A DNA stretch of 64,000 nt, taken from the NCBI RefSeq assembly GCF_017874615.1, contig NZ_JAGIKV010000002.1, positions 62,001-126,000 on the forward strand, given 5' to 3'. The notes beneath the pieces are model-generated. The model saw nothing but the letters and a program-made list of their open reading frames with translations, was not told the origin of the DNA and did no database searches. A program made the translations under genes and the position numbers. Origin of the DNA: Paenibacillus xylanexedens. GTDB lineage: Bacteria > Bacillota > Bacilli > Paenibacillales > Paenibacillaceae. Every line of letters starts with the position of its first letter. Positions within the stretch are counted from its first letter, which is position 1. Of this stretch, positions 8,123-59,337 are shown piece after piece.

Positions 8123-8141
8123 CGTTTCCTCCTGATAGGGA

Positions 8142-11938: not shown

Positions 11939-12000
11939 ACTGAATCAACATACTGATCGAGTATCTAAATAGCTGTATCATGAGCATATATCAAAGGAAA

Positions 12001-12048
12001 AAAGCATCGCAGACAGACTCATCCGAGCCTCTGCGATGCTTCTTTGTG
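12001..12048. terminator. Bidirectional terminator between the chemoreceptor and oxidoreductase genes
   Basis: AAGCATCGCAGA (12003-12014) pairs with TCTGCGATGCTT (12031-12042), with A-rich sequence on the left and a T-rich tail on the right. It serves the plus-strand chemoreceptor gene and can also stop the convergent oxidoreductase transcript. Confidence 0.8.
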
Positions 12049-12117
12049 TTAAGGAGAGCTGAATCAGGAAAAGGTGCAACGGGCACCTCATATGAAAAAT
12101 CCTAAGCACTCCTTTTC

Positions 12118-13089
12118 TTATCTCGATTGTTCCGTGTTCCGTAGCGCTTCCAGTATCAATTGTGCCTGATACCCATCGTTAAAATCATATATCTTAGCTG
12201 GGTTACCCTGTATACGGGCAATGACATGTTTAAGAACCGGCAATTCACTGGCGGATTCAAGCACTTCTACTGGAGTCAGTGGCTGCCCCACCAGACCCGT
12301 CTTCAATTCTTCCCAATTTTCCAAGGCAATCGTGCCCTTCGTACCGTACACCACCATGGATACACGTTCTTCCCCCGCAAATTGAGAGATTCCGTTCAGC
12401 TGAATTCGGGTTCCGTCTTCCAGTTCCATTGCAGCCTGTACTTCTAGTTCACAGTCTCCATTCTCAGGATATTGAACCTGAGTGCTCACTACCCGGATGG
12501 CACCAAACACCTTTTGAATCATATGAATCCAGTGAATTCCCACTTCAAGAATAAATCCACCCTGTTCCCGGCTCGTAATCCATGCATTCTGTTGCCATGA
12601 TCGTGGCCACTGCGGGAATTGCAAAATGAGATCTATTTTGCGAATTGCTCCCACAGTACCCTGCTCAATCATCTCTTGCAACTTCAGCACGGAAGGTTCA
12701 TGCGGCATCGAAAAATGGATGGCATGAACAACGCCTGCCTGCTCTGCTGCATCCAGCATCTTTTTGGCTTCTTCTACACTATTGGCAAGCGGTTTCTCGC
12801 AGAACACATGAATTTTGCGCTCCAGCGCTTCCATCACAACCGGATAATGAAATTTCGGCGGAACTGCAATATACAGCAGATCAATCTGATGTTCATTCAT
12901 CAATTGCTTGTAATCCGTATACGTCCTAACTCCCCGATGAGAAGCTGCAAAAGAAGCCAAACCTTCCTCATTCGCATCACACACCGCTACAATCTCAATC
13001 TTTGTATCCATCTTGGTATTCTCGATTAGATGAACCATATGTAGTCCCATTTTACCCAGCCCAATCAGAGCCATCTTGATGACTGTCAT
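12118..13089 (-). CDS. Gfo/Idh/MocA-family NAD(P)-dependent oxidoreductase
   Basis: 323 aa from ATG 13089 (RBS GGGAGGGG; a TTG at 13104 is the only longer option). The Rossmann motif is ALIGLGKMGLHMV, the family EKP motif is VFCEKPLANSVEEA near residue 95, and the C-terminal sheet domain contains GGFILEVGIHWIHMI with its conserved histidines. Members oxidise or reduce sugars, inositols or related polyols; the substrate here is unknown. Single gene, convergent with the chemoreceptor. Confidence 0.88.
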   Translation of the reverse strand: MTVIKMALIGLGKMGLHMVHLIENTKMDTKIEIVAVCDANEEGLASFAASHRGVRTYTDYKQLMNEHQIDLLYIAVPPKFHYPVVMEALERKIHVFCEKPLANSVEEAKKMLDAAEQAGVVHAIHFSMPHEPSVLKLQEMIEQGTVGAIRKIDLILQFPQWPRSWQQNAWITSREQGGFILEVGIHWIHMIQKVFGAIRVVSTQVQYPENGDCELEVQAAMELEDGTRIQLNGISQFAGEERVSMVVYGTKGTIALENWEELKTGLVGQPLTPVEVLESASELPVLKHVIARIQGNPAKIYDFNDGYQAQLILEALRNTEQSR

Positions 13090-13165
13090 TCCATCCCCTC
13101 CCAATTCCTTTCCAGTATAGCAGAAAGCAAAGAATTGCGAATGCGATGCGTTGATACGAAAAAAA

Positions 13166-13198
13166 ATAAACCTCTAGCTTTCAAGTCGCTAATAGAGG
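13166..13198 (-). terminator. Orphan intrinsic-terminator-like hairpin
   Basis: On the minus strand TAGAGG (13193-13198) pairs with CCTCTA (13171-13176) and a T-rich run follows. It lies upstream of the minus-strand oxidoreductase gene, and the next gene to the right is on the plus strand, so no annotated transcript ends here. The rest of 13090-13500 contains only the promoter described next; no convincing small ORF was seen. Confidence 0.45.
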
Positions 13199-13359
13199 CT
13201 GAAAATCATCATTTACAGTCATTATTTTACATTATTTGTAACTTTGTTGCGATTGGGTAATTCGTTGCAGGGATATATAACCAATTATTTTTACTTTATC
13301 CAGCAATACTTAAAGCGTTACCAACTTAAGAATCAGGAATTTAGACTCACAAAAACAGG

Positions 13360-13387
13360 TTGACAAAAAACCACAAAAAAAGATACT
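13360..13387 (+). promoter_or_regulatory. Candidate sigma-A promoter of the ThDP enzyme gene
   Basis: TTGACA at 13360-13365, a 16-bp A-rich spacer, then GATACT at 13382-13387. The start codon lies about 115 bp downstream. The perfect -35 box is the main support; the -10 box is only fair. Confidence 0.45.
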
Positions 13388-13500
13388 CTTCCTAATAACA
13401 ATGAATATTTCCTCTTACAACCTTAGACTGTAACTTGCATTCAATAAATGGAATATGCGTATGGTTCTAATAACCTATTTCATGAAGCGAGGTGTCCCGC

Positions 13501-15132
13501 ATGAGAACAGTTGCGGACTATTTAGCAGAAACTCTGCGTAATCTAGGCGTTACTCATGTCTTTGGTATTATTGGTAAATCCATCTGTCCTGCTGTACTGA
13601 AAATGGTGGATTACGGATTAGAGTTCATTCCAGGCCGTCATGAATCCAGCTCAGGTTTTTCCGCATCCGGTTATGCATTACAGACAGGTAAACTCGGCGT
13701 TGCCTTTGCCACATCCGGTCCGGGCGGAACCAATCTGCTTACTGCAGCAGCCCATGCAAAGGCCAACAATCTGCCTGTACTGTTTATTACGGGTCATCAA
13801 TCCATTCAGGAACTGGGGCTCCCTCAGTGTCAGGATTCTTCTTCTTATCTGGCTGATCTGGCCGAAATGTTCAGGCCTGCTACGCTATTCAGCAAACTGG
13901 TTGAGCGTGGAGATCACTTCGGCACACTACTGAATCATGCCCTTTCCATTGCACTCGGCCCTAATAAAGGCCCTGTTCACCTCTGTATTCCTTTTGACGT
14001 ACAGACCGAATTGTTATCCCAATGCCGGATTGTCATTCCCGAACCGGAACCTCTGCTTAGCGTATCTAATCTGAATCGCATTTTTCCTCTCATTCAACAA
14101 TCCAACCGTCCCTTAATTATTGCTGGTAAAGGTGTAAGTCGCGCCAGAGCCCATGATGAATTGCTTCAATTGGCCGAATCGTTCAACATTCCCGTCATTA
14201 CTACTCCTGGTGGAAAAGGAGCGATTGCGTGGGACCACCCCCTGTACCATGGACCTTGTGGTGTTGGAGGTTTCCCGCATGCGGACGACATGTTGAACCA
14301 AAGTGACCTTTATATCGTACTCGGTTCACGTCTGAGTGACATGACCCTCTGCAATCTGAAGCCTGAACATCACCCGGCACACCTCATTCAATTTGACGCT
14401 GACCCTACGTTTGTGGGTAAGATTCTGAGCGCTCAAACCTTACATATCACCGGTGATTTGAAGGACAACCTGCAATATTTGCTGGGCACATTAGAAGACC
14501 TCCCTACTCCTGTGAGAACCACGGCACCCATAGATTACACTGTCCCTTTACCAGATCTCCCCCAACTTTCTCTGGCTTCTGTGCTAGATGGAATGAGCAA
14601 TCTGCTTCCGTACGATCATAAACTGTTTGTCGATGATGGCAGCCATGGATTTCATGCGGTCCAGCGATATAAAGTCAAAAAACCAGGCAGCTTTGTGTTT
14701 GACGCATACTTTGCCTGCATGGGGAACGCCATTGGTATGGCGATAGGTGCAAAGGCCGCTTCACCTGAAGAGACCGTTGTATGTATCACCGGGGATGGAT
14801 GTTTCATGATGCTGGGGACGGAGATCAATACCGCGGTATGCAACAATCTGAACGTCATTTTCATTGTCGTTAACAACAAACAACTGGACATGGCACTCAA
14901 AGGAATGGAAAAAACAACAGGCAGAATTGATGGCACGTTATATGAAGTTCCTATGGATGCTGCCAAATTTGCCGAATCTCTCGGTGCGGTTGCGTTTCGA
15001 GCAGAAACTCTTGCCGAATTCTCATCTGCGCTGAACACAGCCCAGACGTTGAATCAAGTAACTGTTATTGAGCTTCTGACCGATCGAGATGAGATTCCAC
15101 CCACGGCTCACCGCACCGTAAATTTGAATTAG
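13501..15132 (+). CDS. ThDP-dependent enzyme, acetolactate-synthase-like
   Basis: 543 aa from ATG 13501, with GAGGTG six bases upstream. It has the three-domain build of the acetolactate synthase/pyruvate oxidase family. The pyrimidine-binding domain carries the catalytic Glu48 in GRHESSSGF. The C-terminal domain has the ThDP/Mg motif GDGCFMMLGTEIN ending in VVNN. Such enzymes decarboxylate 2-oxoacids and transfer the resulting acyl carbanion. No regulatory subunit or ilv gene is nearby. Its neighbours, a CMD-fold protein 12 bp downstream and a FabH-like enzyme further on, suggest secondary metabolism such as acyloin formation rather than branched-chain amino acid synthesis. That role is inference. 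Confidence 0.85.
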   Translation: MRTVADYLAETLRNLGVTHVFGIIGKSICPAVLKMVDYGLEFIPGRHESSSGFSASGYALQTGKLGVAFATSGPGGTNLLTAAAHAKANNLPVLFITGHQSIQELGLPQCQDSSSYLADLAEMFRPATLFSKLVERGDHFGTLLNHALSIALGPNKGPVHLCIPFDVQTELLSQCRIVIPEPEPLLSVSNLNRIFPLIQQSNRPLIIAGKGVSRARAHDELLQLAESFNIPVITTPGGKGAIAWDHPLYHGPCGVGGFPHADDMLNQSDLYIVLGSRLSDMTLCNLKPEHHPAHLIQFDADPTFVGKILSAQTLHITGDLKDNLQYLLGTLEDLPTPVRTTAPIDYTVPLPDLPQLSLASVLDGMSNLLPYDHKLFVDDGSHGFHAVQRYKVKKPGSFVFDAYFACMGNAIGMAIGAKAASPEETVVCITGDGCFMMLGTEINTAVCNNLNVIFIVVNNKQLDMALKGMEKTTGRIDGTLYEVPMDAAKFAESLGAVAFRAETLAEFSSALNTAQTLNQVTVIELLTDRDEIPPTAHRTVNLN

Positions 15133-15144
15133 GAGGAGCATATC

Positions 15145-15513
15145 ATGAGTGAACATGTAGCTCAGGGACTAGACCGTTTTGCGAAACTTTCTGGTGAGTA
15201 CGGCGCAAGAGCCCTCGCACCCATCAAAGAACATTTTCCCGAATTGTCGGAATTTATTATGGGTACGGCATACGGGGATATTTTTCAGCGCACTACGATT
15301 ACGGATCAATGGAAGGAAGTTGCTATCATCTCTTCGTTGATCACCCAAGGACAGTATGAACAATTGGGCGTACATTACACGATGGCTCTAAGCATGGGAG
15401 TGACGGTGGATCAGCTCAAGGGAATATTGCTACATCTGGCGCCATGTGTGGGTGCTCCACGCATTATAAGTGCATTTAATATTTTGCTTGCCACCTTGGA
15501 AGAAATACAGTAA
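15145..15513 (+). CDS. Carboxymuconolactone decarboxylase (CMD) family protein
   Basis: 122 aa, all-helical, single CMD domain (DQWKEVAIISSLITQGQYEQLGVHYTMALSMGVT). It lacks the CxxC of the AhpD peroxidase branch and so resembles the decarboxylase-like branch. It starts 12 bp after the ThDP enzyme with a strong AGGAGG, so the two are surely co-transcribed. It may process the acyloin or keto product of its neighbour, but no substrate can be assigned. Confidence 0.75.
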   Translation: MSEHVAQGLDRFAKLSGEYGARALAPIKEHFPELSEFIMGTAYGDIFQRTTITDQWKEVAIISSLITQGQYEQLGVHYTMALSMGVTVDQLKGILLHLAPCVGAPRIISAFNILLATLEEIQ

Positions 15514-15553
15514 TTCACTTTTCTACATTTTTATACATGATTCGACTTTTTTA

Positions 15554-15583
15554 TTGATCTTTTTACATTCCTACCTTTATAAT
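15554..15583 (+). promoter_or_regulatory. Candidate promoter for the STAS-like and FabH-like genes
   Basis: TTGATC at 15554-15559, an 18-bp spacer, and a perfect TATAAT at 15578-15583, about 117 bp before the STAS-like start. No terminator separates it from the CMD gene, so read-through from the upstream pair is also likely. Confidence 0.5.
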
Positions 15584-15700
15584 ATGGTTAAATTATCCTT
15601 CGAACCAGCTCTCATCTTAGAAGCTTTCAGCAGAGGTCCTATGGGGCTGTGTATCCATTAGCAGGATAGCCTTAACTCATTTAAAGGAGAGAGATCAAGC

Positions 15701-16051
15701 ATGGGAAATTTCATTCTGAAGACTGACGTTCCAAACAAGGTGCTAAACATTGAACTGGAGGGTTCTTTCTCTCAAGAAGACGGTTTGCGTTCCATCTCGG
15801 CCTATCAGGATACGATCGCTCCTCTTAACACCAAGGAGTATGACCTGAACATCGATTGCAAAAAGTTGAATGTTACTGCGCCGGAGATTGTTCCTCTTCT
15901 GGAAGGCTGCCTTCAAATGTTCAAAAAAGATGAATATAAAAAAATCGTGTTGACCCTCGAGAACAACGCGATTCTAAAAATGCAATTGTCCCGACTTGGT
16001 CGGTCTGTTGGCATGGACAATCTCGAAATCATATCTACCGTTACCACTTAA
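15701..16051 (+). CDS. STAS-like small protein of unknown function
   Basis: 116 aa. The alternation of strands and helices (VLNIELEGSFSQEDGLRSI, YDLNIDCKKLNVTAPEIVPLLEGCLQMF, YKKIVLTLENNAILKMQLSRLG) resembles a STAS/SpoIIAA fold. The usual phosphorylatable Ser in a D-x-S context is not evident. It starts at an ATG with RBS AAAGGAGAG and lies 54 bp ahead of the FabH-like gene. A partner or scaffold role for that enzyme is possible but unproven. Confidence 0.6.
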   Translation: MGNFILKTDVPNKVLNIELEGSFSQEDGLRSISAYQDTIAPLNTKEYDLNIDCKKLNVTAPEIVPLLEGCLQMFKKDEYKKIVLTLENNAILKMQLSRLGRSVGMDNLEIISTVTT

Positions 16052-45544: not shown

Positions 45545-46183
45545 ATGTCGAAGGAAGAGCGCAACATAACCTGGCAATCATCCAGCATCAACAGACAAGA
45601 CCGGGAGAAGCATAATGGGCACCGTAGTCGTGCCATATGGTTTACCGGGTTATCAGGTGCAGGAAAGTCATCCCTTGCATTTGCCCTGGAGCAGTATCTC
45701 TACGATCAAGGCGTCCGCTGTTATGTTCTGGACGGGGATAATGTACGTCATGGACTGAACCGTGATCTCGGTTTTACAGCAGGGGATCGTCAAGAAAATC
45801 TGCGGCGAATTGGTGAAGTATCGAAGTTAATGGTAGATGCCGGGTTGTTTGTGCTTTCGGCCTTTATCTCTCCTCATGAACAGGATCGGGAGATGGTTAG
45901 ACAGTTATTTGAACCAGATGATTTCATTGAAATCTATGTGCGCTGTTCAATTCAAGAATGTGAGCGTCGTGATCCCAAGGGTCTATACAAAAAAGCACGC
46001 AATGGTGACATCCCGCATTTCACAGGCATTTCCGCCCCCTATGATGTACCCAAATCTCCTTCATTTATCATCGATACAGAGCAATGGTCCATTGAGGAAG
46101 CCGTGCAAGAGATCGTACAGCATTTGGAGCAGATCGGTGCTCTTCAACTGCCGCTTCCTACGAAAACAGCGCTCGTTCATTAA
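45545..46183 (+). CDS. cysC: Adenylyl-sulfate (APS) kinase, stand-alone
   Basis: 212 aa from ATG 45545. P-loop [46 protein letters not shown] and [23 protein letters not shown] identify APS kinase. It makes PAPS, the sulfate donor for sulfotransferases. No ATP sulfurylase or PAPS reductase is adjacent, so a simple assimilation operon is not suggested. It is convergent with the last gene of the lasso cluster, which itself encodes a sulfotransferase. Confidence 0.95.
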
Positions 46184-46213
46184 TTCTTGCTCATTATACG
46201 AACTACTTACATG

Positions 46214-46243
46214 AAAGGCGCACCAATCGTGGCGCGCCTCTTT
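46214..46243. terminator. Terminator between cysC and the lasso exporter gene
   Basis: AGGCGC (46216-46221) pairs with GCGCCT (46234-46239), followed by CTTTACG. It separates two convergent genes. Confidence 0.6.
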
Positions 46244-46262
46244 ACGTTATGTCATAACCTAC

Positions 46263-48083
46263 CTACTGTCCCACAACACCCGCTTGCATGTTCAAAAGTT
46301 TGCTGAACGTCCCTACCGGATCAGTAGATAACTGCTGGTACCCGCCCTCTTGAATCACCCGACCTTCATCGAGCACAATTACACGATCTGCCGTCCGAAT
46401 CGTAGACAATCGGTGTGCAATCACGATAATGGTCACATGTCCTTTTAACCGTTCCAGCGCCTCATGAATGTACTGTTCATTCTCACTGTCCAGCGCACTC
46501 GTTGCTTCATCCAGTACCAATACAGAAGGATTACGCAGCATAGCCCGGGCAAGCACCAATCGCTGACGTTCACCCCCGGACAGACGAATACCCCGATCAC
46601 CAATGATCGTATCCAGACCCTGAGGCAACTTCCGTACAAATGCCGCAGAGGAGGAAAATTGCAAAGCCTGCCACATCTGTTCTTCACTTGCATTTGGATC
46701 AACCAGACGCAGATTCTCACGAATACTCGTATGAAACAGGAATGGGTCCTGGGAGACATATCCGATGGAACTTCGCCAGCTCAATAATCGTTCTTCTGAC
46801 AGAGGCACACCGTCAATCAAAATACGACCAGTTTCAGGCCTTACGAGGCCCATAATCAGATCTATCAACGTGCTCTTGCCTGCTCCGGATTTACCTACAA
46901 TTGCGGTCATACCCCTTGCTGGAATCGAAGCTTGCACATTTCGCAATGAGTACGTATCACTTCCCTCATAGCGATAGCAGACATCCTCACACGTGATAGA
47001 TTCCTTCAGTTCCATAGGTTGAATCCCATCAGTTCCAACGTCTCCTGCCGAAGCAATCTCTTCACTAATCTCACGACTTTTCGCCGTCTGCGCTTGCAGT
47101 TCTCTAACTACCCGAAATGCAGGCAGCATGGAGCTGATGTACTCCAGATTGGACTGAATCGCCGTAAATCTTGGCCATAACCGGGAAAAGATAAGGATGA
47201 TGAGCAGCAGACTTGCGGGAGGCACCGTCATTACACGGAGAGAAAGATAGATGAATGCCGCAATAATGATTGCCGCGGACATCCGGTGTATCAGCTGTGT
47301 TCCACTGTTCAATTGGCTAAACTGAATGACATTGCGTTCTATCTGTCTGCACATACGCTCAAACCAGTTCATGTGGGAGCGCTCAAGCATGTTGCTCTTA
47401 ATATCCTTAATGCCGTTAAAATGCTCGGTAATGCCGTTATAATAACTTTGCGAGAATTCAGAGGTCTGGTCTCCGATCTGCTTGGCGCGCTTGACGAATT
47501 TTCTCAAGACGATAAATAATACCAATCCACAGACCAGCACAAGTGCCGTCAGCTTGGCGGATAACCAGAAAGCAAGACCGATCTGAATGCCCGTAAAGAT
47601 CAGAGAGGCTGCCATTTGCAGCATAATGCTCGTTCCCTGGCTCACACGTGCAAGTTCAGTCGTTAATATATGGTTAAAATCGGATTTTCGTTTTTGGAGA
47701 AAAAATGACCATTGCGCCATAATAATAGCACCATAGGTTTCCATGCGCAGCGTTCGTACAAATTGCTGTTGGATTCGAGTATTACGGATCGTCTGGAGAC
47801 GCTGCATCCAGGCCTGTCCGGAGACAATCAACACAAAGGTGAACAATACGAGTAACAATTGGCTATTTTCAGAAAAACGATTCAACACGTCGCCAAGCCA
47901 GGGAATGTTTAAGCCTGTGGAGCCCATCTCAAATATGCCAATCAGACTCAGCATCGGAACAAGCATGTAGATACCGATTCCTTCCATGAGACTGATACAG
48001 ATCATCCCTAGCAGATTCCAATATAAAATGGGCCCCGTGACATGATGCAACTTTCGCATGAAATACCTTAATTCCGAGATCAT
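46263..48083 (-). CDS. ABC transporter (permease-ATPase), lasso peptide exporter (D)
   Basis: 606 aa. N-terminal membrane domain with about six helices (1-330), then an ATPase domain: Walker A GKSGAGKSTLIDLIMG, Q-loop YVSQDPFLFH, signature RLSGGERQRLVLARAM, Walker B SVLVLDEATSALDS and IVIAHRLSTIR. There is no peptidase domain, in keeping with separate leader processing by B2. It matches the D protein of lasso clusters, which exports the product and gives self-immunity. ATG overlaps the stop of the preceding gene (ATGA). Confidence 0.9.
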   Translation of the reverse strand: MISELRYFMRKLHHVTGPILYWNLLGMICISLMEGIGIYMLVPMLSLIGIFEMGSTGLNIPWLGDVLNRFSENSQLLLVLFTFVLIVSGQAWMQRLQTIRNTRIQQQFVRTLRMETYGAIIMAQWSFFLQKRKSDFNHILTTELARVSQGTSIMLQMAASLIFTGIQIGLAFWLSAKLTALVLVCGLVLFIVLRKFVKRAKQIGDQTSEFSQSYYNGITEHFNGIKDIKSNMLERSHMNWFERMCRQIERNVIQFSQLNSGTQLIHRMSAAIIIAAFIYLSLRVMTVPPASLLLIILIFSRLWPRFTAIQSNLEYISSMLPAFRVVRELQAQTAKSREISEEIASAGDVGTDGIQPMELKESITCEDVCYRYEGSDTYSLRNVQASIPARGMTAIVGKSGAGKSTLIDLIMGLVRPETGRILIDGVPLSEERLLSWRSSIGYVSQDPFLFHTSIRENLRLVDPNASEEQMWQALQFSSSAAFVRKLPQGLDTIIGDRGIRLSGGERQRLVLARAMLRNPSVLVLDEATSALDSENEQYIHEALERLKGHVTIIVIAHRLSTIRTADRVIVLDEGRVIQEGGYQQLSTDPVGTFSKLLNMQAGVVGQ

Positions 48084-49276
48084 ACTTTACCCCTTTCCGT
48101 CACCGTATACCTTTTAATTCGCCGCCAGAACCAGAGAAACGGACGTAACGGAAAGTACAGAAAAAACAAAGAACGCGGAAGCGGCAATTGATCCACATCC
48201 CATGTACTTGGATATAAACGTTCAATAAAGAAAAACCATTTCTGTTTTGTACTTCGAAGTTTAAACAAATAGGATTGATAAGACTTCATATCAGCCGGGC
48301 TTTCCAGCATCTCGTTCATGAACTTTGCGCCTTCGTTGGCTAATCGCTTGCCTGTACGGTCACTCAAGGACATCAAGGACCTGTACTCTACATCCAGCGG
48401 CGTATTTAACAGATCTGAGGCTAAGTGAAGAGCCTGCGAACCGATCGATAAACGTCCCTCCGCTTTCAGACGTCTCTCTACTTTCTTCACATCGAGTGGC
48501 ATGCTGCGGATCATCTGGTCGATATCCAGTAACCAGCGCAGTCTGAACCAGCCGTGTCGTGCACCATGGGTTACGAGATAAGCCCATAGGTCTTCTTGTT
48601 CGAGCATACGGACAGGTGTCTGTGTGTATGAACTGAACCGGCTGCGTTTCCACAGCAATTCAAAATCGGTTTCTTTGCCCGAATCCGGGTTCAGGCGCCA
48701 ATGGATCTCCACTTGAGTCCTTTTGACCGGATGGGTGTAACAGATATGATGTTCCCGCCATTTCCAGCTGCGCACCGTAGGTGCCCGCTCCCCTTCCTTG
48801 GATATATATCCGAGGGTAGCCAGAATGCCTTCAGCCGCTTCCACATCATCAAACGGAATCAGGATATCCAGGTCTTTGGAGGTTCGCATCGATACATCGC
48901 CATAGAGATCATGTGCGAGCGCCGGTCCCTTTAGTGTAATATTGCGGATGCCGCGTTCACGAAAAGCTCCACACACCTGCTCCATTTCAGCTGTCAGATG
49001 TAACATGCGGAACGTATTGACCGTATATTGTTGTCTCAGACTCTCCATAACAACTGCAGGAATGATTGCAGAGTTTAATTCTTTCATTTTCAAATAAAGG
49101 ACAGAGTATAAGCGGTGATGATAGACAAGCCGCAGAAAGAGCTGCCAATCGGTTCCTTGCAAACCCGCCTTGAGTTCTTCAGGGGATAGAGCCGTCAGAT
49201 CACCTCTAATCATGCTCAAAATCAGCTTAAGCTCCTTCGGAAACCCTGATGAATAGAGTTCACTTTCATGTATCAT
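48080..49276 (-). CDS. Nucleotidyltransferase-family protein of the lasso cluster
   Basis: 398 aa from ATG 49276 (GGGGAGA upstream), overlapping B2 by 11 bp. The region GIRNITLKGPALAHDLYGDVSMRTSKDLDILI has the nucleotidyltransferase-5 pattern, with acidic metal ligands in KDLDILI and a third acidic position in TQVEIHW. Genes of this type recur in Firmicute lasso clusters such as that of paeninodin, where the exact reaction is not settled. It may modify the peptide or its phosphate. Confidence 0.85.
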   Translation of the reverse strand: MIHESELYSSGFPKELKLILSMIRGDLTALSPEELKAGLQGTDWQLFLRLVYHHRLYSVLYLKMKELNSAIIPAVVMESLRQQYTVNTFRMLHLTAEMEQVCGAFRERGIRNITLKGPALAHDLYGDVSMRTSKDLDILIPFDDVEAAEGILATLGYISKEGERAPTVRSWKWREHHICYTHPVKRTQVEIHWRLNPDSGKETDFELLWKRSRFSSYTQTPVRMLEQEDLWAYLVTHGARHGWFRLRWLLDIDQMIRSMPLDVKKVERRLKAEGRLSIGSQALHLASDLLNTPLDVEYRSLMSLSDRTGKRLANEGAKFMNEMLESPADMKSYQSYLFKLRSTKQKWFFFIERLYPSTWDVDQLPLPRSLFFLYFPLRPFLWFWRRIKRYTVTERGKV

Positions 49277-49751
49277 AGACAATCTCCCCAGATCCCTTCT
49301 CCGGACACCGTTTGCCAAACACACCGACAACCGTATATTGGTCCATAGTATCAGCTCCGGTCACGATCAATTTACCACTTCGCAGCCAGGCATGAGCCAT
49401 CATATGTCCTTGCTTATTCCGTGCAGTCCCCATGTATAACGTACTCTCTATCTTGCGTCGCTCAAGCATCTTCATCCCGGCAATCGCCATTACAAGACAG
49501 CGACTTTCCCATAACGTATATTTACTGGCGAGCGAAATCGCTTTGGAAATATTCCGTATAGTGATGACCTCGCTGCGTTCGAGTCCTGTCATCGGTGTTT
49601 CTACCATAGGCGTACCCAGCCCTGGCGCGATTTTGGCAAATGGCATAGCCTTCTGTATGCGTGCCCAGCCAAGGAGGATATAGGCCTCCCATACCAGTCG
49701 ACGCATCGACCGCGGGAGCGAGAGATAAGCCTTTATTTTTCGCAACATCAT
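49266..49751 (-). CDS. Lasso peptide leader peptidase (B2, transglutaminase-like)
   Basis: 161 aa from ATG 49751 (GGAG six bases upstream; ATG 49748 also possible). The transglutaminase-like cysteine protease triad is visible: Cys in WESRCLVMAIAGMKML, His in MAHAWLRSGK and Asp near GADTMDQY. It cuts the leader off the precursor before ring closure. It starts one base after the B1 stop. Confidence 0.93.
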   Translation of the reverse strand: MMLRKIKAYLSLPRSMRRLVWEAYILLGWARIQKAMPFAKIAPGLGTPMVETPMTGLERSEVITIRNISKAISLASKYTLWESRCLVMAIAGMKMLERRKIESTLYMGTARNKQGHMMAHAWLRSGKLIVTGADTMDQYTVVGVFGKRCPEKGSGEIVYDT

Positions 49752-49752
49752 T

Positions 49753-50052
49753 CTACACTCCACGAGTAACGTCGATTAAACCTTCACGGGACAGATGTTC
49801 CAGGAATTGCACCACCTGCTCACGACATACATCTGGCTCAATCTCATACTCCGCAGCAAGTACCTCCACAACTTCACCCAGCGTGCGTTCTTCTGCGATC
49901 AGGTCCCAGATTCGTCCACCGGTACTCCCGAGATTATAGTATTTTCCAGAGCTAATGCTCATCATGACTTTCTCACTGCCCATATCACTGACCAGATTGC
50001 CTTCCTTCCGGGTTACCCGGTCTTCCACATTCATCGGCGTAGTCGCTGTCAT
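49753..50052 (-). CDS. Lasso peptide RRE / PqqD-like protein (B1)
   Basis: 99 aa, PqqD fold: SGKYYNLGSTGGRIWDLIAEERTLGEVVEVLAAEYEI is typical. This RiPP recognition element binds the leader peptide and hands it to B2. ATG overlaps the kinase stop (ATGA). Confidence 0.94.
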   Translation of the reverse strand: MTATTPMNVEDRVTRKEGNLVSDMGSEKVMMSISSGKYYNLGSTGGRIWDLIAEERTLGEVVEVLAAEYEIEPDVCREQVVQFLEHLSREGLIDVTRGV

Positions 50053-50996
50053 TGTCCTGTATGCACTCCTTTGCGTATATGATCTGTGATCCGATCCACC
50101 ATCTCAAATGCTGTAAACTCAGCGCCCGTTCTGACCAATCTGCCAATCTCCACACTTGCCGAAAGTCTTGAAGCCGTCTCGAACAGCCACTGTGCCAGCC
50201 CCTGTCTTGCAACGAGTCCACCACGGAACGTGTGCGAGCATAACAGATGCAGTCGTTCTAGCCCCGTCACTTCAACCAGTTGAACAGATGTATGGTTTTC
50301 CTCCGGTTGTGGAGCAAGTTCAAATATTCCACCTAGTGGTACGGCCATCTCATGAAAATAGTGCTGAACAGGTATCGCATACTTCGTAATCTCTGCGTGA
50401 ACCGTTGCATAATCCTGTTCCTTCATGCCGAAGCCATCCAGACTGGGCTGCCATAACTTCTGTTGCGGATAACCAGGTGATACGATGGCTCTTCCCCCAG
50501 CATCCCAGGTCAGTGCGACAACATCATCGGTGAGAAGCGGATATCCGCGTGATGCCAGTGCAGCCGACAACGTCGATTTACCTGCCCCCGAATGTCCGAC
50601 AAATGCGTAAGCCCAGCCATCAATAACCACTGCACTACCATGCAATGGAAGGATGCCACGCTGCATCATAATGACCGCCATACAGGTGCCCAGGATGAAT
50701 AATCTGACCTTTTTCTCATCTGCACCCGGTATGGGGGATACAACAATGCGCTTTCCTTGTTCCATTAGAAACAGACCTGTATCTTCGATTTTGAAAAAAA
50801 GACTGCCCTCTCGTGCCACAAAGTTGTCGTTGCCTACATCCCAATCCTCCCACAATGGGGTCAGATCTGAAGACTCGATGTGCACTTCCACGACATCAAA
50901 ATCAGTCCCCGCATCCTTGGGTGCGATCTGTAGTTCAGGCATTCGAATTTGGCTCGACCAGCGCAGACCATACGCCACATAATGCACAGGCAACAA
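50049..50996 (-). CDS. HPr-kinase-like lasso peptide kinase (K)
   Basis: 315 aa from TTG 50996, nine bases after AGGAGG. The C-terminal half is HprK-like, with HGSAVVIDG, Walker A FVGHSGAGKSTLSAALA and LLTDDVVAL. In the paeninodin system the equivalent kinase phosphorylates the C-terminal Ser of the precursor; both precursors here end in Ser. An in-frame ATG at 51092 would add 32 residues encoded across the terminator hairpin (SD GGGCGG only two bases away), which is less likely but noted. Confidence 0.9.
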   Translation of the reverse strand: MLPVHYVAYGLRWSSQIRMPELQIAPKDAGTDFDVVEVHIESSDLTPLWEDWDVGNDNFVAREGSLFFKIEDTGLFLMEQGKRIVVSPIPGADEKKVRLFILGTCMAVIMMQRGILPLHGSAVVIDGWAYAFVGHSGAGKSTLSAALASRGYPLLTDDVVALTWDAGGRAIVSPGYPQQKLWQPSLDGFGMKEQDYATVHAEITKYAIPVQHYFHEMAVPLGGIFELAPQPEENHTSVQLVEVTGLERLHLLCSHTFRGGLVARQGLAQWLFETASRLSASVEIGRLVRTGAEFTAFEMVDRITDHIRKGVHTGQ

Positions 50997-51025
50997 TGAA
51001 CGACGCCTCCTTCGTAATAAAATGT

Positions 51026-51102
51026 AAAAAAAAGCCCTTATATTCATGTTGCTCAATATAAGGGCGGAGGCGAAAAGCTGGATTTGTTGCATTTCCGCCC
51101 TT
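51026..51102 (-). promoter_or_regulatory. Attenuator-like element: terminator with competing upstream hairpin
   Basis: In transcript order: AAGGGCGGA (51102-51094), 25-nt loop, TCCGCCCTT (51068-51060). The last six bases of this second arm are also the start of the terminator arm GCCCTTATATT (51065-51055), which pairs perfectly with AATATAAGGGC (51044-51034) and is followed by eight T (51033-51026). The two hairpins exclude each other. It lies between the precursor genes and the kinase, so it can set precursor to enzyme ratio. Confidence 0.72.
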
Positions 51103-51135
51103 TAAGTATGATGACACTTCATAAAACTTAATAAC

Positions 51136-51273
51136 TTAGGAAGTTGGATCGTACAGATCCGCATCGTGAACCGTTACCCAGTCAATTTGTCTGTAGCCAG
51201 TACCGGCCATCGTTTGATTGACTTCCAACACTTCAAGAGCTGGTGCTTGCCATTCCTTTTTTTCCATTTGCAT
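51136..51273 (-). CDS. Lasso peptide precursor 2 (paeninodin-like)
   Basis: 45 aa; ATG 51273 behind AAAAGGAGGT. Leader of 22 residues (MQMEKKEWQAPALEVLEVNQ, then TM) with the W-x-x-P-x-L-x-x-L pattern read by B1 and Thr at position -2. The core of 23 residues begins AGTGYRQIDW and ends ADLYDPTS. Asp9 can form the nine-member macrolactam ring with the amino group of Ala1, as in paeninodin. The C-terminal Ser23 is the expected phosphorylation site. Tyr5 and Tyr19 are possible sulfation sites. Confidence 0.93.
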   Translation of the reverse strand: MQMEKKEWQAPALEVLEVNQTMAGTGYRQIDWVTVHDADLYDPTS

Positions 51274-51326
51274 CGTATTCACCTCCTTTTCGCACTTCTA
51301 AGTATGATGGCATATGGTAAAGCTTT

Positions 51327-51461
51327 CTAACTAGTTCCGTAGAGATCCGCATCGTGAACCGTAACCCAGTCGATATGTTTGTAACCTGTGCCCGCCATTG
51401 TTTGGTTGACTTCCAATATTTCCAGTACTGGTTCTTGCCATTCCTTTTTTTCCATTTGCAT
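51327..51461 (-). CDS. Lasso peptide precursor 1 (paeninodin-like)
   Basis: 44 aa; ATG 51461 behind ATAGGAGGT. The leader differs from precursor 2 at three positions only (QEPVLEILEVNQTM). The core of 22 residues begins AGTGYKHIDW, keeps the identical block IDWVTVHDADLY, and ends YGTS. Asp9 and C-terminal Ser are kept. It is first in transcript order, 65 bp after the cyclase stop. The pair arose by tandem duplication of about 190 bp; the downstream flank TAAGTATGATG is repeated as well (51299-51309 and 51103-51113). Confidence 0.93.
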   Translation of the reverse strand: MQMEKKEWQEPVLEILEVNQTMAGTGYKHIDWVTVHDADLYGTS

Positions 51462-51526
51462 CGTATTCACCTCCTATCATGAGTCAAATGTAAGAAAAAT
51501 CCGGGCCCACAGTTCACCGGGCTATA

Positions 51527-53458
51527 TCAGAATTTCCGAATGAACCGATAGACAATCAGACTATGCATCATCAATCGCAGATCTGGATGTGAAGCAAGCT
51601 CTGGTCTCGGACTCGGAAAGTTGGCCAAGGCTGATTTGATACGCTCCGTGTTTAATATGCCAGCGACCTTGCTGTCAGAACACAAAGTACGTAACTCAGC
51701 GGTAAAGGCATCCCAATTCGGAATGATGCGATGTAACCAATCTGCCGGCTGCACACCCCGTACCCGCTGATTCAGTCTGACCTTGTCAGGCAACTCCGGT
51801 GAAGTAGCCCGGCGAATTAATGAACGATCCGTCCCGTGTTTCACATATTGTTCAATCGGTACAGACAGGCAGAATCGAATGACTCTGACGTCACTGGTCG
51901 GGTCACGTTCCCAAGCCCGATAACGGAGAGAACATTTTGTGGCGACAGCACCGTTTTTGTTCGCAATGGCCAGATTATTGAATTTCTCGGCACGCACTTT
52001 GAGTGCATCGGCCTGGGCACCGCCCTGCAGAACGATAATGGATTTGAGTCGTTCCAGTACACCTGTTCTCTGCGCAAAGTCAGGATGAATCAACTGTACG
52101 GATGCGGCCTGGCTGGCTCCTTTGGACTGAGCCTTGAACCAATCCGGATATGCCTTTTTCCCGGTGATCTTGGCTATACGGGAGAAAGGCATGCCCGTTC
52201 GTTCACTATACTGCTGAATCTCACGGAACCAGCGGTACCAGTGGCCACTTTTCAGTAGACTGGCGTAATAATCCAGAGCCGGGCCCCAGGAGATGGTGAA
52301 ATTACCACGTGCGCCTGTGAGCAGGATGCCTGCATCTTGCTGGCTCGCTTTTTCATAGAATCCGCGAATCCAGAATGAATTTTCAAAGTATTTATAAGGC
52401 ATTTCCATAATGTCGAGCCAGGTATCTACTTCACTGAGTGGACTTCTGCCTTCAAAATCAAGGTAGTTCTCTGTGATATTGCCGACATGATTAATGGTTG
52501 AACGTATGAAGGGCCGTTCGTCTGCAAGCAACGTTTTCGACGTATAATCTGTGAAATCCGGTACGGGAACATAACTATAGGCCTGCAGCCGTTTACCCTG
52601 ACTTCTCAGTGTTCCGGAAGCAAAACCAACCACGGCTCCCGAGTCCAGTCCGCCACTTAATGCAGCAGCCACCTGTCTGTGCGTTCGCAAGCGCGATCCA
52701 ACCGCCTGCCCAAAGACCTCTCGAAACGCTTCTACATACTCGCCATCGGATTTAAGCCTTAGGGGTTCGACTTCATTCCAGCGATGATATTGCTTCAGCT
52801 CCAGTCTCCCATCCCGGAAGACAAGTGTATGTGCAGACGGTAGCTGGCTTATTCCCCGATATACAGTTGAATTGATATCTGCTGAATCATGCATGTCGGG
52901 AATGGCAAGGAACTCGGACAACCAGGTCTCATCAAGTTCTTTATGTACCCCTTCAAGCCCGAGCAACGGATTCATGAGTGTGCAGAAAGCAAAACGTGAA
53001 CCATCATGTCGGTAATAAAAAGCTCTCATGCCTGTAATATCTCTTGCTGCATACAGTTTTCGATTCCGCTCATCCCATATCGCGAATACAAAATCCCCCA
53101 GCAATCGGACGGCCACATCGTCTCCCCAGCGCTGATAGGCACGCAGGATCAATTCACTATCCGCCAACATAGCCAGTTCAGCTCTGGATATCTGTAATTG
53201 ATCAGCCAGTTGTTCCCGATTATCCAGAATCGCATCTGCCGTGATGGTCAGACCACTTTCCTCATCATATAAAGGTAATTTCTCGCTAACCGATTCTGGT
53301 GTAATCCATTGGGCGTGACAGCTGAGGAACGCCTCGTTGCCTTTCCACACCCCTGTTGTATCCGCAGGGACATGCCCCAGGCTTGCATACAAGCGCCAGC
53401 TGTCTTCCCATAGCGCCTGCTGACCATCATTGTGAACAATTCCTGCTATGGCGCTCAT
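51527..53458 (-). CDS. Lasso cyclase (C), asparagine-synthetase-like
   Basis: 643 aa from ATG 53458 (GGGGAGG upstream), overlapping the sulfotransferase stop by four bases. The N-terminal glutaminase-like domain begins MSAIAGIVHNDG and lacks the catalytic Cys2 of true asparagine synthetases. The C-terminal synthetase domain has the PP-loop AALSGGLDSGAVVGFAS near residue 255. The enzyme adenylates the Asp9 side chain and closes the ring. Its length and motif losses are as expected for lasso C proteins. Confidence 0.94.
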   Translation of the reverse strand: MSAIAGIVHNDGQQALWEDSWRLYASLGHVPADTTGVWKGNEAFLSCHAQWITPESVSEKLPLYDEESGLTITADAILDNREQLADQLQISRAELAMLADSELILRAYQRWGDDVAVRLLGDFVFAIWDERNRKLYAARDITGMRAFYYRHDGSRFAFCTLMNPLLGLEGVHKELDETWLSEFLAIPDMHDSADINSTVYRGISQLPSAHTLVFRDGRLELKQYHRWNEVEPLRLKSDGEYVEAFREVFGQAVGSRLRTHRQVAAALSGGLDSGAVVGFASGTLRSQGKRLQAYSYVPVPDFTDYTSKTLLADERPFIRSTINHVGNITENYLDFEGRSPLSEVDTWLDIMEMPYKYFENSFWIRGFYEKASQQDAGILLTGARGNFTISWGPALDYYASLLKSGHWYRWFREIQQYSERTGMPFSRIAKITGKKAYPDWFKAQSKGASQAASVQLIHPDFAQRTGVLERLKSIIVLQGGAQADALKVRAEKFNNLAIANKNGAVATKCSLRYRAWERDPTSDVRVIRFCLSVPIEQYVKHGTDRSLIRRATSPELPDKVRLNQRVRGVQPADWLHRIIPNWDAFTAELRTLCSDSKVAGILNTERIKSALANFPSPRPELASHPDLRLMMHSLIVYRFIRKF

Positions 53459-54723
53459 GACTTGCCTCCCCGTAGAATCTTGCGCTGTGAAGCCCAGGCG
53501 CTGATCTGATGACCAAATGGTACCCATGATTTGATACGCTGTATTTTGCTTTGAGCAGAAGCCAGCTGGACTTTCAAGCGCTCTCGCTCACTGTAACCCC
53601 GTTCCAGACGATGATCTGCTGCCCGTAATGCGGCTTGCAGCTGTCTAATCGTTACCAGTGCAGCTAGCGTCGGGTCTGTCTTTTCCGGTTCTTCGACAAC
53701 TTGGTCATTAAGATTCCCAAGCGGATCATGAACGGCAGAATCTGCCGGCTGCATTTGGTATTGCGGTTGCCACTGGCAACCGGTCGCTGCTGTCAACTGA
53801 TGCGTAATTCGATCGATGACCTCTTGATCGGGATTTGCATCATAATGTACACCCGTCCATTGTTCGGCTTCTGCGAGCTGTTCACTGTATCCCATCCGGT
53901 GGAACAGATCTGCCCCCATCACACGGCAATAGAGTTCAACTTCATGGGGTTCTAATATGTTTTTCCAGTTGTTAACAGAACCCTGATGTGCCTCTTGATG
54001 CGAAGAGAGGAATGGATCACCCACGCCCATACTGTAGAACATGCCAGACTTGGCACTGTCCAGAAACTGTCCATACTGCTCCATTCCCTGTTCATATCGA
54101 ATTCCCAGAAACGCGCATAGTTTCTCAAGTTCTTCCTGTGGATTGGTAACCAATCGTTCATATTGCAATTCATATGCATTGGAGTGAGGTTTGGCAAAAT
54201 AATCATTCAAGCGGAGCATCCCAAGTGTGAGGTCAACGGATTTCATATTTAATTTAGGGCTCTGCAGACTATGAATCAGGTCGAATTCTTCTCCTGTGTG
54301 GCGATTTACCTTTTTGAATGATGCAGCTACGGCCAGAGGATTACGCTGGAGATGAATACGCTTGGACTGAGGGAACAGACGATCCAGCCATTCCAGCATG
54401 TAATAGTACCGTGGAGATTTATCAACGATGAAGTCTGCTCCACTGCCTTCCAGGAATCCATTGTAGATCTCAAGAGCAAAACTTCTGCACGCCTTTTCGA
54501 AGACATCCTCGGATACCATGGCATTGTAGAACTGACGAATGATGGAGCTGCCACCATAAGCGCGTGAATCAGCCTTGGGCAAATCGACAAGATTCATTAG
54601 AAACCACATTTCCTGGGTGGCAAATATACGACTATGATTTTGCAGCATTACGGTGGATAAGGAACTACCACTGCGGGGAACACATAGTAAGAAAACAAGT
54701 CCGTTACCTTGAGCATCGATCAA
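53455..54723 (-). CDS. PAPS-dependent sulfotransferase of the lasso cluster
   Basis: 422 aa from TTG 54723 (AGGAGAGG upstream). The 5'-phosphosulfate loop reads CVPRSGSSLSTVML and the 3'-phosphate motif HLQRNPLAVAASFKKVNR, both near their usual places in Sulfotransferase_3 proteins. The last 80 residues form a probable coiled coil (VTIRQLQAALRAADHRLERG) ahead of a basic tail. First gene of the cluster transcript and translationally coupled to the cyclase, so its substrate is most likely the lasso peptide or its precursor. Confidence 0.88.
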   Translation of the reverse strand: MIDAQGNGLVFLLCVPRSGSSLSTVMLQNHSRIFATQEMWFLMNLVDLPKADSRAYGGSSIIRQFYNAMVSEDVFEKACRSFALEIYNGFLEGSGADFIVDKSPRYYYMLEWLDRLFPQSKRIHLQRNPLAVAASFKKVNRHTGEEFDLIHSLQSPKLNMKSVDLTLGMLRLNDYFAKPHSNAYELQYERLVTNPQEELEKLCAFLGIRYEQGMEQYGQFLDSAKSGMFYSMGVGDPFLSSHQEAHQGSVNNWKNILEPHEVELYCRVMGADLFHRMGYSEQLAEAEQWTGVHYDANPDQEVIDRITHQLTAATGCQWQPQYQMQPADSAVHDPLGNLNDQVVEEPEKTDPTLAALVTIRQLQAALRAADHRLERGYSERERLKVQLASAQSKIQRIKSWVPFGHQISAWASQRKILRGGKS

Positions 54724-54896
54724 TGGCAGCCTCTCCTCTGTTCATTAGTATAAATATGTAGCTGGGATAGACCAGACTCTACCTTTGTGTTTGGCAAAAC
54801 GAGTAATATGCACGCTATAGGTCAGCATTTTGCAATATTCCGTCGAAAGTTCACCCGGGAATGAAGCAAAACACATGGTTACATTCGACAACTCTC

Positions 54897-54950
54897 TGAT
54901 ACAATATGTATTTATAGTTTTACTCTATGATACAAAATGTATCATGTCAA
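54897..54950 (-). promoter_or_regulatory. Lasso cluster promoter with two palindromic operators
   Basis: On the minus strand TTGACA (54945-54950), a 17-bp spacer (54928-54944) and TAGAGT (54922-54927). The spacer is exactly the perfect palindrome TGATACAAAATGTATCA. A second copy with two mismatches, TGATACAATATGTATTT, lies at 54897-54913, 31 bp away and just past the predicted start point near 54915. This is the layout of a repressed promoter with two sites on one face of the helix. No regulator gene lies in the cluster. A leader of about 190 nt precedes the sulfotransferase. The rest of 54951-55146 shows nothing clear. Confidence 0.7.
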
Positions 54951-56481: not shown

Positions 56482-56734
56482 ATAAATCCTTCCTTTTCAT
56501 GCATCTATTAAATGATTGATGTCTTTCTCCTATTGTATAGGAAGGATATCACACTTGTTCACTATTTCTGTAAAAAACAGTGCAGTTCTGTTCTTACGAC
56601 TCACCTTACCTCCGAGGTGAACTTGCGTAATTGTATCATTTTATATCCACTCTCATCACATATCGTCCTCGCCCGTGAATATACTTAATTACCGACAGGC
56701 CAAACTGTGCCGCGTAATCAATGGGGGTGCCTAC

Positions 56735-57904
56735 ATGTCAAATCCACACCAGCCTTACTCGTTCGTCGTGTCGAAGGAAGATTGGTCGCTTCACCGCAAA
56801 GGGTACCAGGACCAACAGCGCCATCAGCAAAAGGTGAAAGATGTCATCAAGCAGAATCTGCCTGATCTGATTACGGAAGAAAACATCATCATGTCTGATG
56901 GAAAACAAATCATCAAGGTACCAATCCGCAGTCTGGATGAGTACCGTTTTGTGTATAACTACCAGAAGCAAAAACATGTCGGTCAAGGAGATGGTGACAG
57001 TCAGGTCGGAGACGTCATCGGTCGTGATCCCTCTGCTTCGCAGAAACCCGGCAAAGGTGAAAAAGCTGGCGATCAGCCTGGTCATGATATTGTGGAAGCC
57101 GAAGTTAGTATTGAGGAATTGGAAGATATGCTCTTCGCTGAGCTGGAATTACCCGATCTGAAGCAGAAAGACAAAGACCTGATTGAGACACATACGGTAG
57201 TTTTCAACGATATTCGCAAAAAAGGTATGCAGTCCAATATTGACAAGAAACGTACCATTCTGGAGAATTTGCGTCGCAATGCAACGACCGGTACGCCAGG
57301 CATCCATCACATCAGTCCGGATGACCTGCGCTACAAGACATGGGAAGACAAAATCATTCCACAATCCAATGCCGTTATTATTGCCATGATGGATACATCC
57401 GGGTCCATGGGTTCGTTTGAGAAATACTGCGCGCGCAGCTTTTTCTTCTGGATGACCCGTTTTCTACGCCGTCAGTATGAGAAAGTTGAGATTGTTTTCC
57501 TCGCCCATCATACAGAAGCCAAGGAAGTTACCGAAGAAGAGTTCTTTACCCGTGGCGAGAGCGGAGGCACCATCTGCTCCTCTGTATATATGAAGGCACT
57601 GGATATTATTGACAGTCGTTATCCTCCTTCAAGCTACAACATCTACCCTTTCCACTTCTCTGACGGGGATAATCTGACCTCGGATAACGAACGGTGTGTG
57701 AAGCTGATCGGTGAGTTAATGAAGCGTAGCAACATGTTTGGATACGGCGAAGTAAATCAGTACAACCGCAGCAGCACACTGATGTCGGCTTATCGTCATA
57801 TCAAGATGGATCAGTTCATGTATTATGTGATCAAAGAAAAAGGCGAAGTGTACAAAGCTTTGCGCAGCTTTTTCCAGAAAAGGGAAGGAGGCAGCGTTAG
57901 ATGA
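56735..57904 (+). CDS. yhbH: Sporulation protein YhbH (UPF0229, VWA-like)
   Basis: 389 aa from ATG 56735. N-terminal [31 protein letters not shown] and [16 protein letters not shown], then a metal-ion-dependent adhesion-like site [15 protein letters not shown] near residue 225. In B. subtilis it is a sporulation gene near prkA. Its stop overlaps the spoVR start (ATGA). prkA is not directly upstream here. Confidence 0.95.
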
Positions 57905-59337
57905 CAGATGAGATCCGCGACCTTGAATACGCAATTGCCGAGATTATGGAGATTGCCAATAGTTTTGGCCTGGATTATTACCCCATGCGGTACGAAATCT
58001 GCCCATCGGATATTATTTATACATTTGGAGCCTACGGCATGCCGACCAGATTCAGCCACTGGAGCTTTGGCAAAACATTTCATAAGATGAAAATGCAATA
58101 CGATTTTGGACTCAGCAAAATTTATGAGCTTGTCATCAACTCCAACCCTTGTTATGCCTTCTTGCTGGATGGCAATTCCCTGATTCAGAACAAATTGATC
58201 GTAGCCCACGTATTGGCCCACTGCGATTTTTTCAAAAACAATGCCCGCTTCTCCAAATCCAACCGTAATATGGTCGAAAGCATGGCTGCTACGGCGGATC
58301 GGATCAGCAATTATGAGATGGAGTACGGAACGGAAGCCGTCGAAGCATTTATCGATGCCGTGATCGCAATTCAGGAACATGTGGACCCACAGCTGATTAA
58401 ACCCCGCCATTTGGACAAACAACGTTACATGGAGATGAAAATGCGGGAGCAGCGCGGTGAGAAAAAACCACGGCCGGAAGGCCGCTATGATGATCTATGG
58501 TCGCTTGATGACGTGCAGACGGAAGAAACACCCGCTGAAGGTATTCAGGTCCATCATTTTCCACCTGAACCGGAGAAGGATGTCATGTGGTTTATTCAGG
58601 AATTCTCCGAAGTGTTGACCGACTGGCAGCGGGATATCATGAGTATGATGCGTGAAGAGATGTTATATTTCTGGCCACAGATGGAAACCAAAATCATGAA
58701 CGAAGGCTGGGCATCCTACTGGCATCAACGCATTATCCGTGAGCTCGATCTGAACAGTGAGGATACGATCGAATTTGCCAAACTCAACTCCTCCGTGGTG
58801 CAGCCATCCAAACAAAGTCTGAATCCGTATTATTTGGGACTGAAGATTTTCGAGGATATTGAACGGCGCTGGGATAATCCAACCCGTGAAGAACAGGAAC
58901 GTTGGGGCCGCAAACCAGGCCAAGGTCGTGCCAAAATGTTCGAGGTGCGTGAATTCGATTCCGATACCTCCTTTATCCGCAATTACATGACCAAACAATT
59001 AACCGAGGATCTGGACCTCTACGTATTCGAGAAAAAAGGCCCGGACTGGAAAATCACCGACAAGTCCTGGCAGAACATACGGGATCAGCTCGTATTTTCA
59101 CGTGTCAACGGGGGCTCCCCTTACTTGGTCGTGCAAGATGCTGATTATCTGCGGACAGGGGAACTCGTGCTGAAACATCAATATGAAGGCATCGAGCTGG
59201 ATCTGAAATATATGGAACGCACCCTTCCCTATCTGTATCGCCTCTGGGGACGTACCGTACATGTGGAGACACGTGTCGAGGATAAACCGATCTGGTTTAC
59301 GTATGATGGCAAGAAACACCACCGCAAGTTTATGTAA
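57901..59337 (+). CDS. spoVR: SpoVR family protein
   Basis: 478 aa. Family features: [38 protein letters not shown] near the start, [15 protein letters not shown], and [11 protein letters not shown] with WASYWH. It is required for normal spore cortex in B. subtilis by an unknown mechanism. Translationally coupled to yhbH. Confidence 0.96.

What the first reader, a model, noticed from the sequence alone, without database searches (positions are those of the whole stretch)
45545..54950. Lasso peptide cluster that pairs a peptide kinase with a sulfotransferase and a nearby PAPS-making kinase
Seen: sulfotransferase, C, two precursors, HprK-like K, B1, B2, nucleotidyltransferase and ABC exporter, with cysC convergent 79 bp from the exporter stop. 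Known: paeninodin-type clusters carry K and a nucleotidyltransferase, and CysC makes PAPS. Inference: the product may be phosphorylated and also sulfated, with the donor supplied locally. The sulfotransferase overlaps the cyclase by four bases, which argues that it acts on this peptide.
Basis: partly seen in the sequence, partly recalled or inferred. Interest (0 to 1): 0.8.

Follow-up and report, generated by a model that had tools for sequence, protein, structure and literature searches.

The report
Predicted sulfated, phosphorylated lasso peptide cluster
A Paenibacillus genome carries genes that are predicted to make knot-shaped (lasso) peptides bearing both a phosphate and a sulfate, and the only clear gene in that genome for the enzyme that would make the sulfate donor sits right beside them, a pairing kept in most of the sampled relatives that have the same sulfotransferase.

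The parts
53455..54723 (-). Sulfotransferase ST, first gene of the operon; TPST-like catalytic domain (about residues 1-287) plus a predicted C-terminal coiled coil
   Evidence: PF13469 over cut-off; AF2 model and fold search; R17, E38 and S135 invariant in 52 sequences
51527..53458 (-). Lasso cyclase C; overlaps ST by 4 bases
   Evidence: Asn_synthase and GATase_7; NF033535 372 bits, below its cut-off of 525
51327..51461 (-). Precursor A1, predicted core of 22 residues with D9, T12, D15, D17, Y19 and terminal Ser
   Evidence: NF033524 63 bits
51136..51273 (-). Precursor A2, predicted core of 23 residues with D9, T12, D15, D17, Y19 and terminal Ser
   Evidence: NF033524 64 bits
50049..51092 (-). 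HPr-kinase-like kinase K, predicted to phosphorylate the C-terminal Ser
   Evidence: PF07475 28.0 bits, below cut-off 33.3; place in the cluster as in 61 of 61 fetched loci with ST and C
49753..50052 (-). B1 leader-binding (PqqD-like) protein
   Evidence: NF033536 123.7 bits, cut-off 80
49266..49763 (-). B2 leader peptidase
   Evidence: NF033537 99.7 bits, cut-off 33
48080..49276 (-). Nucleotidyltransferase N (PsmN-like role predicted)
   Evidence: PF14907 198.2 bits
46263..48083 (-). ABC exporter D
   Evidence: PF00005 and PF00664
45545..46183 (+). cysC, APS kinase, convergent to D with a 79-bp gap; predicted PAPS source for ST
   Evidence: TIGR00455 and PF01583 over cut-off; only clear copy in the genome
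54922..54950 (-). Promoter-like match upstream of ST (10 of 12 bases); consensus only
   Evidence: 21 such sites found against 16.0 (sd 4.2) expected in the region, so weak

Best explanation
The operon likely makes two lasso peptides that are predicted to carry phosphate on the C-terminal serine and a sulfate put on by the operon's sulfotransferase, for which the adjacent cysC, the only clear APS kinase gene in the genome, would supply the donor PAPS. Shown by calls: the genes and their order, the pairing of ST with lasso cyclases, the cysC linkage, the TPST-like fold of the model, and the core motif. Inferred: B1 holds the leader; K phosphorylates the C-terminal Ser as PadeK does; N may add hexose there as PsmN does; B2 and C cut the leader and close the A1-D9 ring; ST moves sulfate from PAPS with E38 as base and R17 and S135 binding PAPS; D exports the product. 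The acceptor is most likely Thr12, in the acidic stretch [S/T]12-x-x-D15-x-D17 just after the ring, with Tyr19 as runner-up. ATP sulfurylase would make APS, CysC would turn part of it into PAPS, and an APS-type reductase would handle assimilation, leaving PAPS to this ST.
Against: No product, activity or expression data. 11 of 73 ST+ genomes lack the linkage. Four ST-less genomes of one genus keep both cysC nearby and S/T12, with no PF13469 gene and no detectable ST remnant. The independent-pairs test of ST against S/T12 is not significant: 2 for, 0 against, 4 without difference, p 0.5, so common descent may explain much of the motif pairing. CysH also passes two broader models named PAPS reductase (NF002537, TIGR00434). 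In the window cysC is convergent. Sulfotransferase families other than PF13469 and PF00685 were not searched in G000.
Confidence: 0.6

Rival explanations
1. The ST is a true tyrosine sulfotransferase and sulfates Tyr19 in the acidic run D15-x-D17-x-Y19, as TPST and RaxST do; Ser/Thr12 is kept for folding or cyclase recognition.
For: Closest fold is TPST. Residue 19 is Tyr in 56 and Thr in 12 of 73 ST-paired cores. G008, with at most a 14-residue trace of ST, has Phe at 19.
Against: Residue 19 is G, A, D or V in 5 of 73 ST-paired cores, including L103 and L185, while residue 12 is always Ser or Thr. D-x-D-x-Y also occurs in ST-less cores (for example loci L125-L127 and L142).
Confidence: 0.25
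2. The ST acts on the hexose that N adds, or on a cell-surface glycan, not on a peptide side chain.
For: The nearest NCBIfam model is NoeE, which by its name acts on nodulation factors (136 bits, far below its cut-off of 500). PMC13381572 says paeninodins often lie near capsule loci (passages). Of 61 fetched ST+C loci, 59 have N.
Confidence: 0.08
3. cysC is a neighbour by inheritance and serves general sulfur metabolism; ST, if active, draws on the common PAPS pool.
For: In the window it is convergent on its own strand. Four ST-less genomes keep it near. The linked cysC genes mostly form one group on the tree, as plain vertical inheritance would give. CysH also fits broader PAPS-reductase models.
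Against: Both orientations occur, including same-strand coupling to D. G009, G024 and G074 have cysH but no cysC match, and no ST. In 5 of the 7 ST-less lasso genomes with some PF13469 match (45 searched), a cysC lies within 7 kb of such a match, away from the lasso cluster (in two of the five that match is below the family cut-off).
Confidence: 0.15

Closest known systems
Paeninodin (Paenibacillus dendritiformis) lasso cluster
   Same: Precursor family, split B1/B2, HPr-like kinase, C-terminal Ser
   Different: The passages seen describe it with the kinase and do not mention a sulfotransferase or cysC for it
Pseudomycoidin (Bacillus pseudomycoides) lasso cluster
   Same: Kinase plus a nucleotidyltransferase that leads to hexoses on the phosphorylated Ser (passages)
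   Different: No sulfotransferase mentioned in the passages seen
Sulfotransferase-bearing Firmicutes lasso clusters noted in 2014 and 2016
   Same: Sulfotransferase gene at the start of the cluster, kinase, N between B2 and D (passages of PMC8498205 and PMC4289311)
   Different: No donor gene, fold or acceptor proposed in the passages seen; the 2016 paper itself is not held
RaxX/RaxST of Xanthomonas
   Same: A bacterial sulfated peptide made by a PAPS-dependent sulfotransferase, with PAPS-making enzymes required (passages of PMC6637879)
   Different: Linear, type I secreted, Tyr-sulfated peptide; PAPS genes described there as core housekeeping genes; homology of ST to RaxST not tested
Tyrosylprotein sulfotransferases TPST1/TPST2
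   Same: Fold, PAPS-binding motifs and position of a Glu
   Different: About 20% identity; added C-terminal coiled coil; substrate unknown

Membership tests
Paeninodin-type lasso peptide cluster | Precursor of the PadeA family | tested here: met
   NF033524 64 and 63 bits, cut-off 27
Paeninodin-type lasso peptide cluster | Split B1 and B2 proteins | tested here: met
   NF033536 and NF033537 over cut-off
Paeninodin-type lasso peptide cluster | Lasso cyclase | tested here: inconclusive
   Asn_synthase and GATase_7 over cut-off; NF033535 is the best NCBIfam match but 372 bits against 525
Paeninodin-type lasso peptide cluster | HPr-like kinase acting on the C-terminal Ser | tested here: inconclusive
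   PF07475 below cut-off; all 73 ST-paired and 65 ST-less distinct cores end in Ser; activity not testable
Paeninodin-type lasso peptide cluster | Threaded lasso product | not testable with these tools
   Needs isolation and NMR or MS
PAPS-dependent sulfotransferase (Sulfotransfer_3) | PF13469 over cut-off | tested here: met
   100.9 bits against 27
PAPS-dependent sulfotransferase (Sulfotransfer_3) | Arg and Ser of the PAPS motifs and a Glu/His base between them (features as listed in PMC6637879) | tested here: met
   R17, S135 and E38 invariant in 52 sequences
PAPS-dependent sulfotransferase (Sulfotransfer_3) | Sulfate transfer | not testable with these tools
   Assay needed
Tyrosylprotein sulfotransferase | TPST fold | tested here: met
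Tyrosylprotein sulfotransferase | Tyr acceptor in an acidic context | tested here: inconclusive
   Tyr19 in 56 of 73 ST-paired cores, not invariant
APS kinase (CysC) | TIGR00455 and PF01583 over cut-off | tested here: met
   254.4 and 219.5 bits
RaxX-type sulfated peptide system | RaxX-like precursor and RaxST homology | not tested
   Named only as a working analogue

The most novel reading that the evidence does not exclude
Paenibacillaceae host a large family of sulfo-phospho lasso peptides: a TPST-fold bacterial enzyme sulfates a Ser/Thr of the lasso loop (S/T12-x-x-D-x-D) rather than a tyrosine, and a dedicated APS kinase that travels with the cluster makes PAPS for this one product, which would be the cell's main PAPS-dependent sulfated molecule.
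Probability: 0.35. Interest if true: 0.8.

Novelty: new variant of a known kind. Interest (0 to 1): 0.62.

Why it matters
A sulfotransferase in lasso clusters has stood in print as an unexplained remark since 2014. If right, sulfation joins phosphorylation, glycosylation, methylation, acetylation and deimination as a lasso tailoring step, with a named acceptor residue, donor supply and enzyme fold that one in vitro assay can test. It would also give a bacterial peptide sulfotransferase usable as a tool, and a reason why these Paenibacillus keep an APS kinase that their sulfate assimilation may not need.

Tried and rejected
Chance or artefact: rejected, since the gene order recurs in the fetched loci. 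Sulfated lasso peptide or a cysC link already in print: 14 of 15 papers listed; 15 of 115; 9 of 9; 4 of 4; 15 of 43; 10 of 200; 3 of 3, listing only. Some lists are capped and most subscription papers are not held, so this is no proof of absence.

Second APS kinase in G000: the only other PF01583 match scores 22.0 bits, just over the cut-off of 21.1, over 68 of 152 positions; P0010 does not find it at 1e-20; the 295-aa frame there looks by eye like some other P-loop protein. Other sulfotransferases in ST-less lasso genomes: 38 of 45 have no PF13469 match. An ST remnant in the four ST-less genomes of genus g7 was sought and not found; a 100-150 residue frame upstream of C there only looks like a coiled coil by eye and matched no NCBIfam model in the one case run. 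Traces upstream of C: G013 (E 2.5e-6), G008 (14 residues, E 0.007), and large fragments in G019.

Tying ST to residue 12 by independent pairs on the cyclase tree: 6 pairs on starred branches, 2 as expected, 0 against, 4 without difference, p 0.5. The Fisher values ignore kinship and are not used as proof. Cores were labelled by script; four filed as ST-less were moved to ST-paired by hand, because a broken cyclase frame (L079, L081) or a moved cyclase (L110, L112) had fooled the rule. The core of G013, which lost ST, and that of G019, whose ST is broken, equal a core of ST+ clusters and count only there. Counts are of distinct cores; near relatives remain. No precursor was found for L152. Residue 12 is comparable only in the 36 of 65 ST-less cores with the same ring pattern.

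ST-less linkage controls: of 91 ST-less lasso genomes in the family sample, 45 were counted, 43 with cyclase positions printed plus G009 and G024; G103 has three weaker cysC matches whose positions were not printed. cysC of L103 falls outside the linked group with a long branch. No precursor was found for the cyclase-less cluster of L108. The fold search excludes no family.
Full report
What is there. The minus-strand operon ST-C-A1-A2-K-B1-B2-N-D fills window 46263-54723, with gaps of -4, 65, 53, 43, -4, -11, -11 and -4 bases, and cysC converges on D with a 79-bp gap. Pfam and NCBIfam place ST, B1, B2, N, cysC and both precursors in their families over cut-off, and D carries ABC transporter domains over cut-off; K and C fall below the most specific curated cut-offs but match the right models. 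Both cores read .G.G....D9..T12..D15.D17.Y19 and end in Ser. Flanks look unrelated: a PdaA-like deacetylase beyond cysC, an MFS protein, a DUF444 protein and SpoVR beyond the ST. The window lies in G000, 6.99 Mb in 56 contigs; the nearest named relatives of its ST are Paenibacillus.

ST belongs to the lasso cluster. In 75 genomes of the genus an intact ST occurs in 67 (one more, G019, has fragments), each next to a lasso cyclase by coordinates, two of these cyclases being broken in frame. In a family sample of 295 genomes, 73 have ST (E up to 1e-30) and all 73 have a cyclase match, against 91 of 222 without ST. Of the 67 genus genomes with PF13469, 61 have a single match, the lasso ST. An exact 4-base ST-C overlap was measured in 77 of 91 fetched loci, records of the same genome not removed.

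PAPS budget. G000 has one clear APS kinase, the cysC of the window; the other PF01583 match scores 22.0 bits over part of the model and is not found by the protein query. G000 has one PF13469 protein and no other PF00685 protein over cut-off. Its ATP sulfurylase and CysH genes lie together on another contig, and no cysC was matched in that 16-kb stretch (genes laid out, named). CysH exceeds the APS_reductase cut-off (250.1 against 235.3) and misses the PAPS_reductase equivalog cut-off (222.7 against 254.2), but it also passes two broader models named PAPS reductase. Genomes G009, G024 and G074 have cysH but no cysC match, and no ST. All 73 ST+ family genomes have a cysC homologue, against 127 of 222 others. 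So CysC looks dispensable for assimilation here and free to feed the ST; this is inference from gene content.

Linkage of cysC. In the genus, 55 of 67 ST+ genomes have cysC close beside the cluster; the 12 exceptions share an ST about 50-52% identical to the query, and the three of them that were fetched form one clade. In the family sample, 62 of 73 ST+ genomes have it within 20 kb. The 11 others are G018, G046, G064, G170, G191, G205, G225, G231, G247 (23 kb), G279 and G291 (a 6-kb contig); G191 keeps a broken cysC piece beside one of its clusters. Among 45 ST-less lasso genomes with known positions, 4 have cysC near the cyclase, all in one genus. In those ten the cysC open frame begins within 3 bases of, or inside, the end of D. 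On the ST tree the three states (same strand, convergent, none) need 13 changes, so closeness outlasts rearrangement. Of the lasso-linked cysC genes put on a tree, all but L103 group together apart from the 7 unlinked ones, at moderate support (90/80).

The acceptor. The fetched loci gave 73 distinct ST-paired cores and 65 ST-less ones. Every ST-paired core has Ser or Thr at residue 12 (47 T, 26 S), and 72 of 73 fit .G.G....D..[ST]..D.D. Residue 19 is Tyr in 56 and Thr in 12. Of the 65 ST-less cores, 36 share the ring pattern; 7 of these have S/T12, six from the genus that keeps cysC and one from G008, where at most a trace of ST is left and Tyr19 is Phe. The other 29 of the 36 carry Q, Y, K, F, W or D there. 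G013, another ST-loss genome, shares its core with ST+ clusters. L103 (Cohnella kolymensis) stands out: its cyclase sits in a 20-row clade whose other 19 members are ST-less, and its core has T12-x-x-D-x-D where most AGPG relatives have Q12; it also has ST and a same-strand cysC. The pairing may still be largely common descent: the independent-pairs test is not significant.

What is known. Passages of PMC8498205 say that some Firmicutes clusters have a putative sulfotransferase gene at the start and a nucleotidyltransferase gene between B2 and D (citing Zhu 2016, not held), and that the kinase phosphorylates the C-terminal Ser but not the threaded peptide. PMC4289311 reported an HPr kinase and a sulfotransferase in some clusters of anaerobes. 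PMC9266682 tells of PsmN. PMC13381572 says that the role of paeninodins is unknown and that they often lie near capsule loci. In what I saw (listings and passages) no sulfated lasso peptide and no cysC link is reported.

Verdict. The combination itself is not new, but the donor link, the fold and the core motif turn it into a specific, testable case of predicted lasso-peptide sulfation.

Noticed in passing
L108 (G307:C33:84000-96000), 5202-11765 +: cysC, a divergent ST (37% identical), K-, B1-, B2- and D-like genes on one strand with no lasso cyclase found in the stretch: possibly a linear sulfated RiPP cluster. No precursor was found.
   Followed up: partly
L041, L118, L119, L120 (genus g7): ST-less lasso clusters with four precursors each that keep cysC a few kb away and have a 100-150 residue frame of unknown kind upstream of C.
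   Followed up: partly
L082, L086, L087, L092, L095, L099, L102, L111, L114, L116: A second cyclase and precursor (core starting GGPNG, no Tyr12 or Thr12 motif) sits inside the same locus as the ST-paired set.
   Followed up: no
G324, G114, G309, G117, G295 (no loci fetched): Other PF13469 matches, away from the lasso cluster, lie within 7 kb of a cysC, as if sulfotransferases tend to keep an APS kinase near.
   Followed up: no
G191:C1:1519682-1519972: A cysC piece with stops inside beside an ST-bearing lasso cluster.
   Followed up: no
G037:C5:230463-232390 and G051:C1:2585894-2587823: Lasso cyclase frame broken in two while ST is intact; could be sequencing error or decay.
   Followed up: no
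L185 (Paenibacillus maysiensis), 9938-15867: ST-bearing cluster whose core has Val at residue 19 but keeps Ser12.
   Followed up: no
window 56675-59337 +: DUF444 protein followed by SpoVR with a 4-base overlap, just beyond the cluster; apparently unrelated.
   Followed up: no
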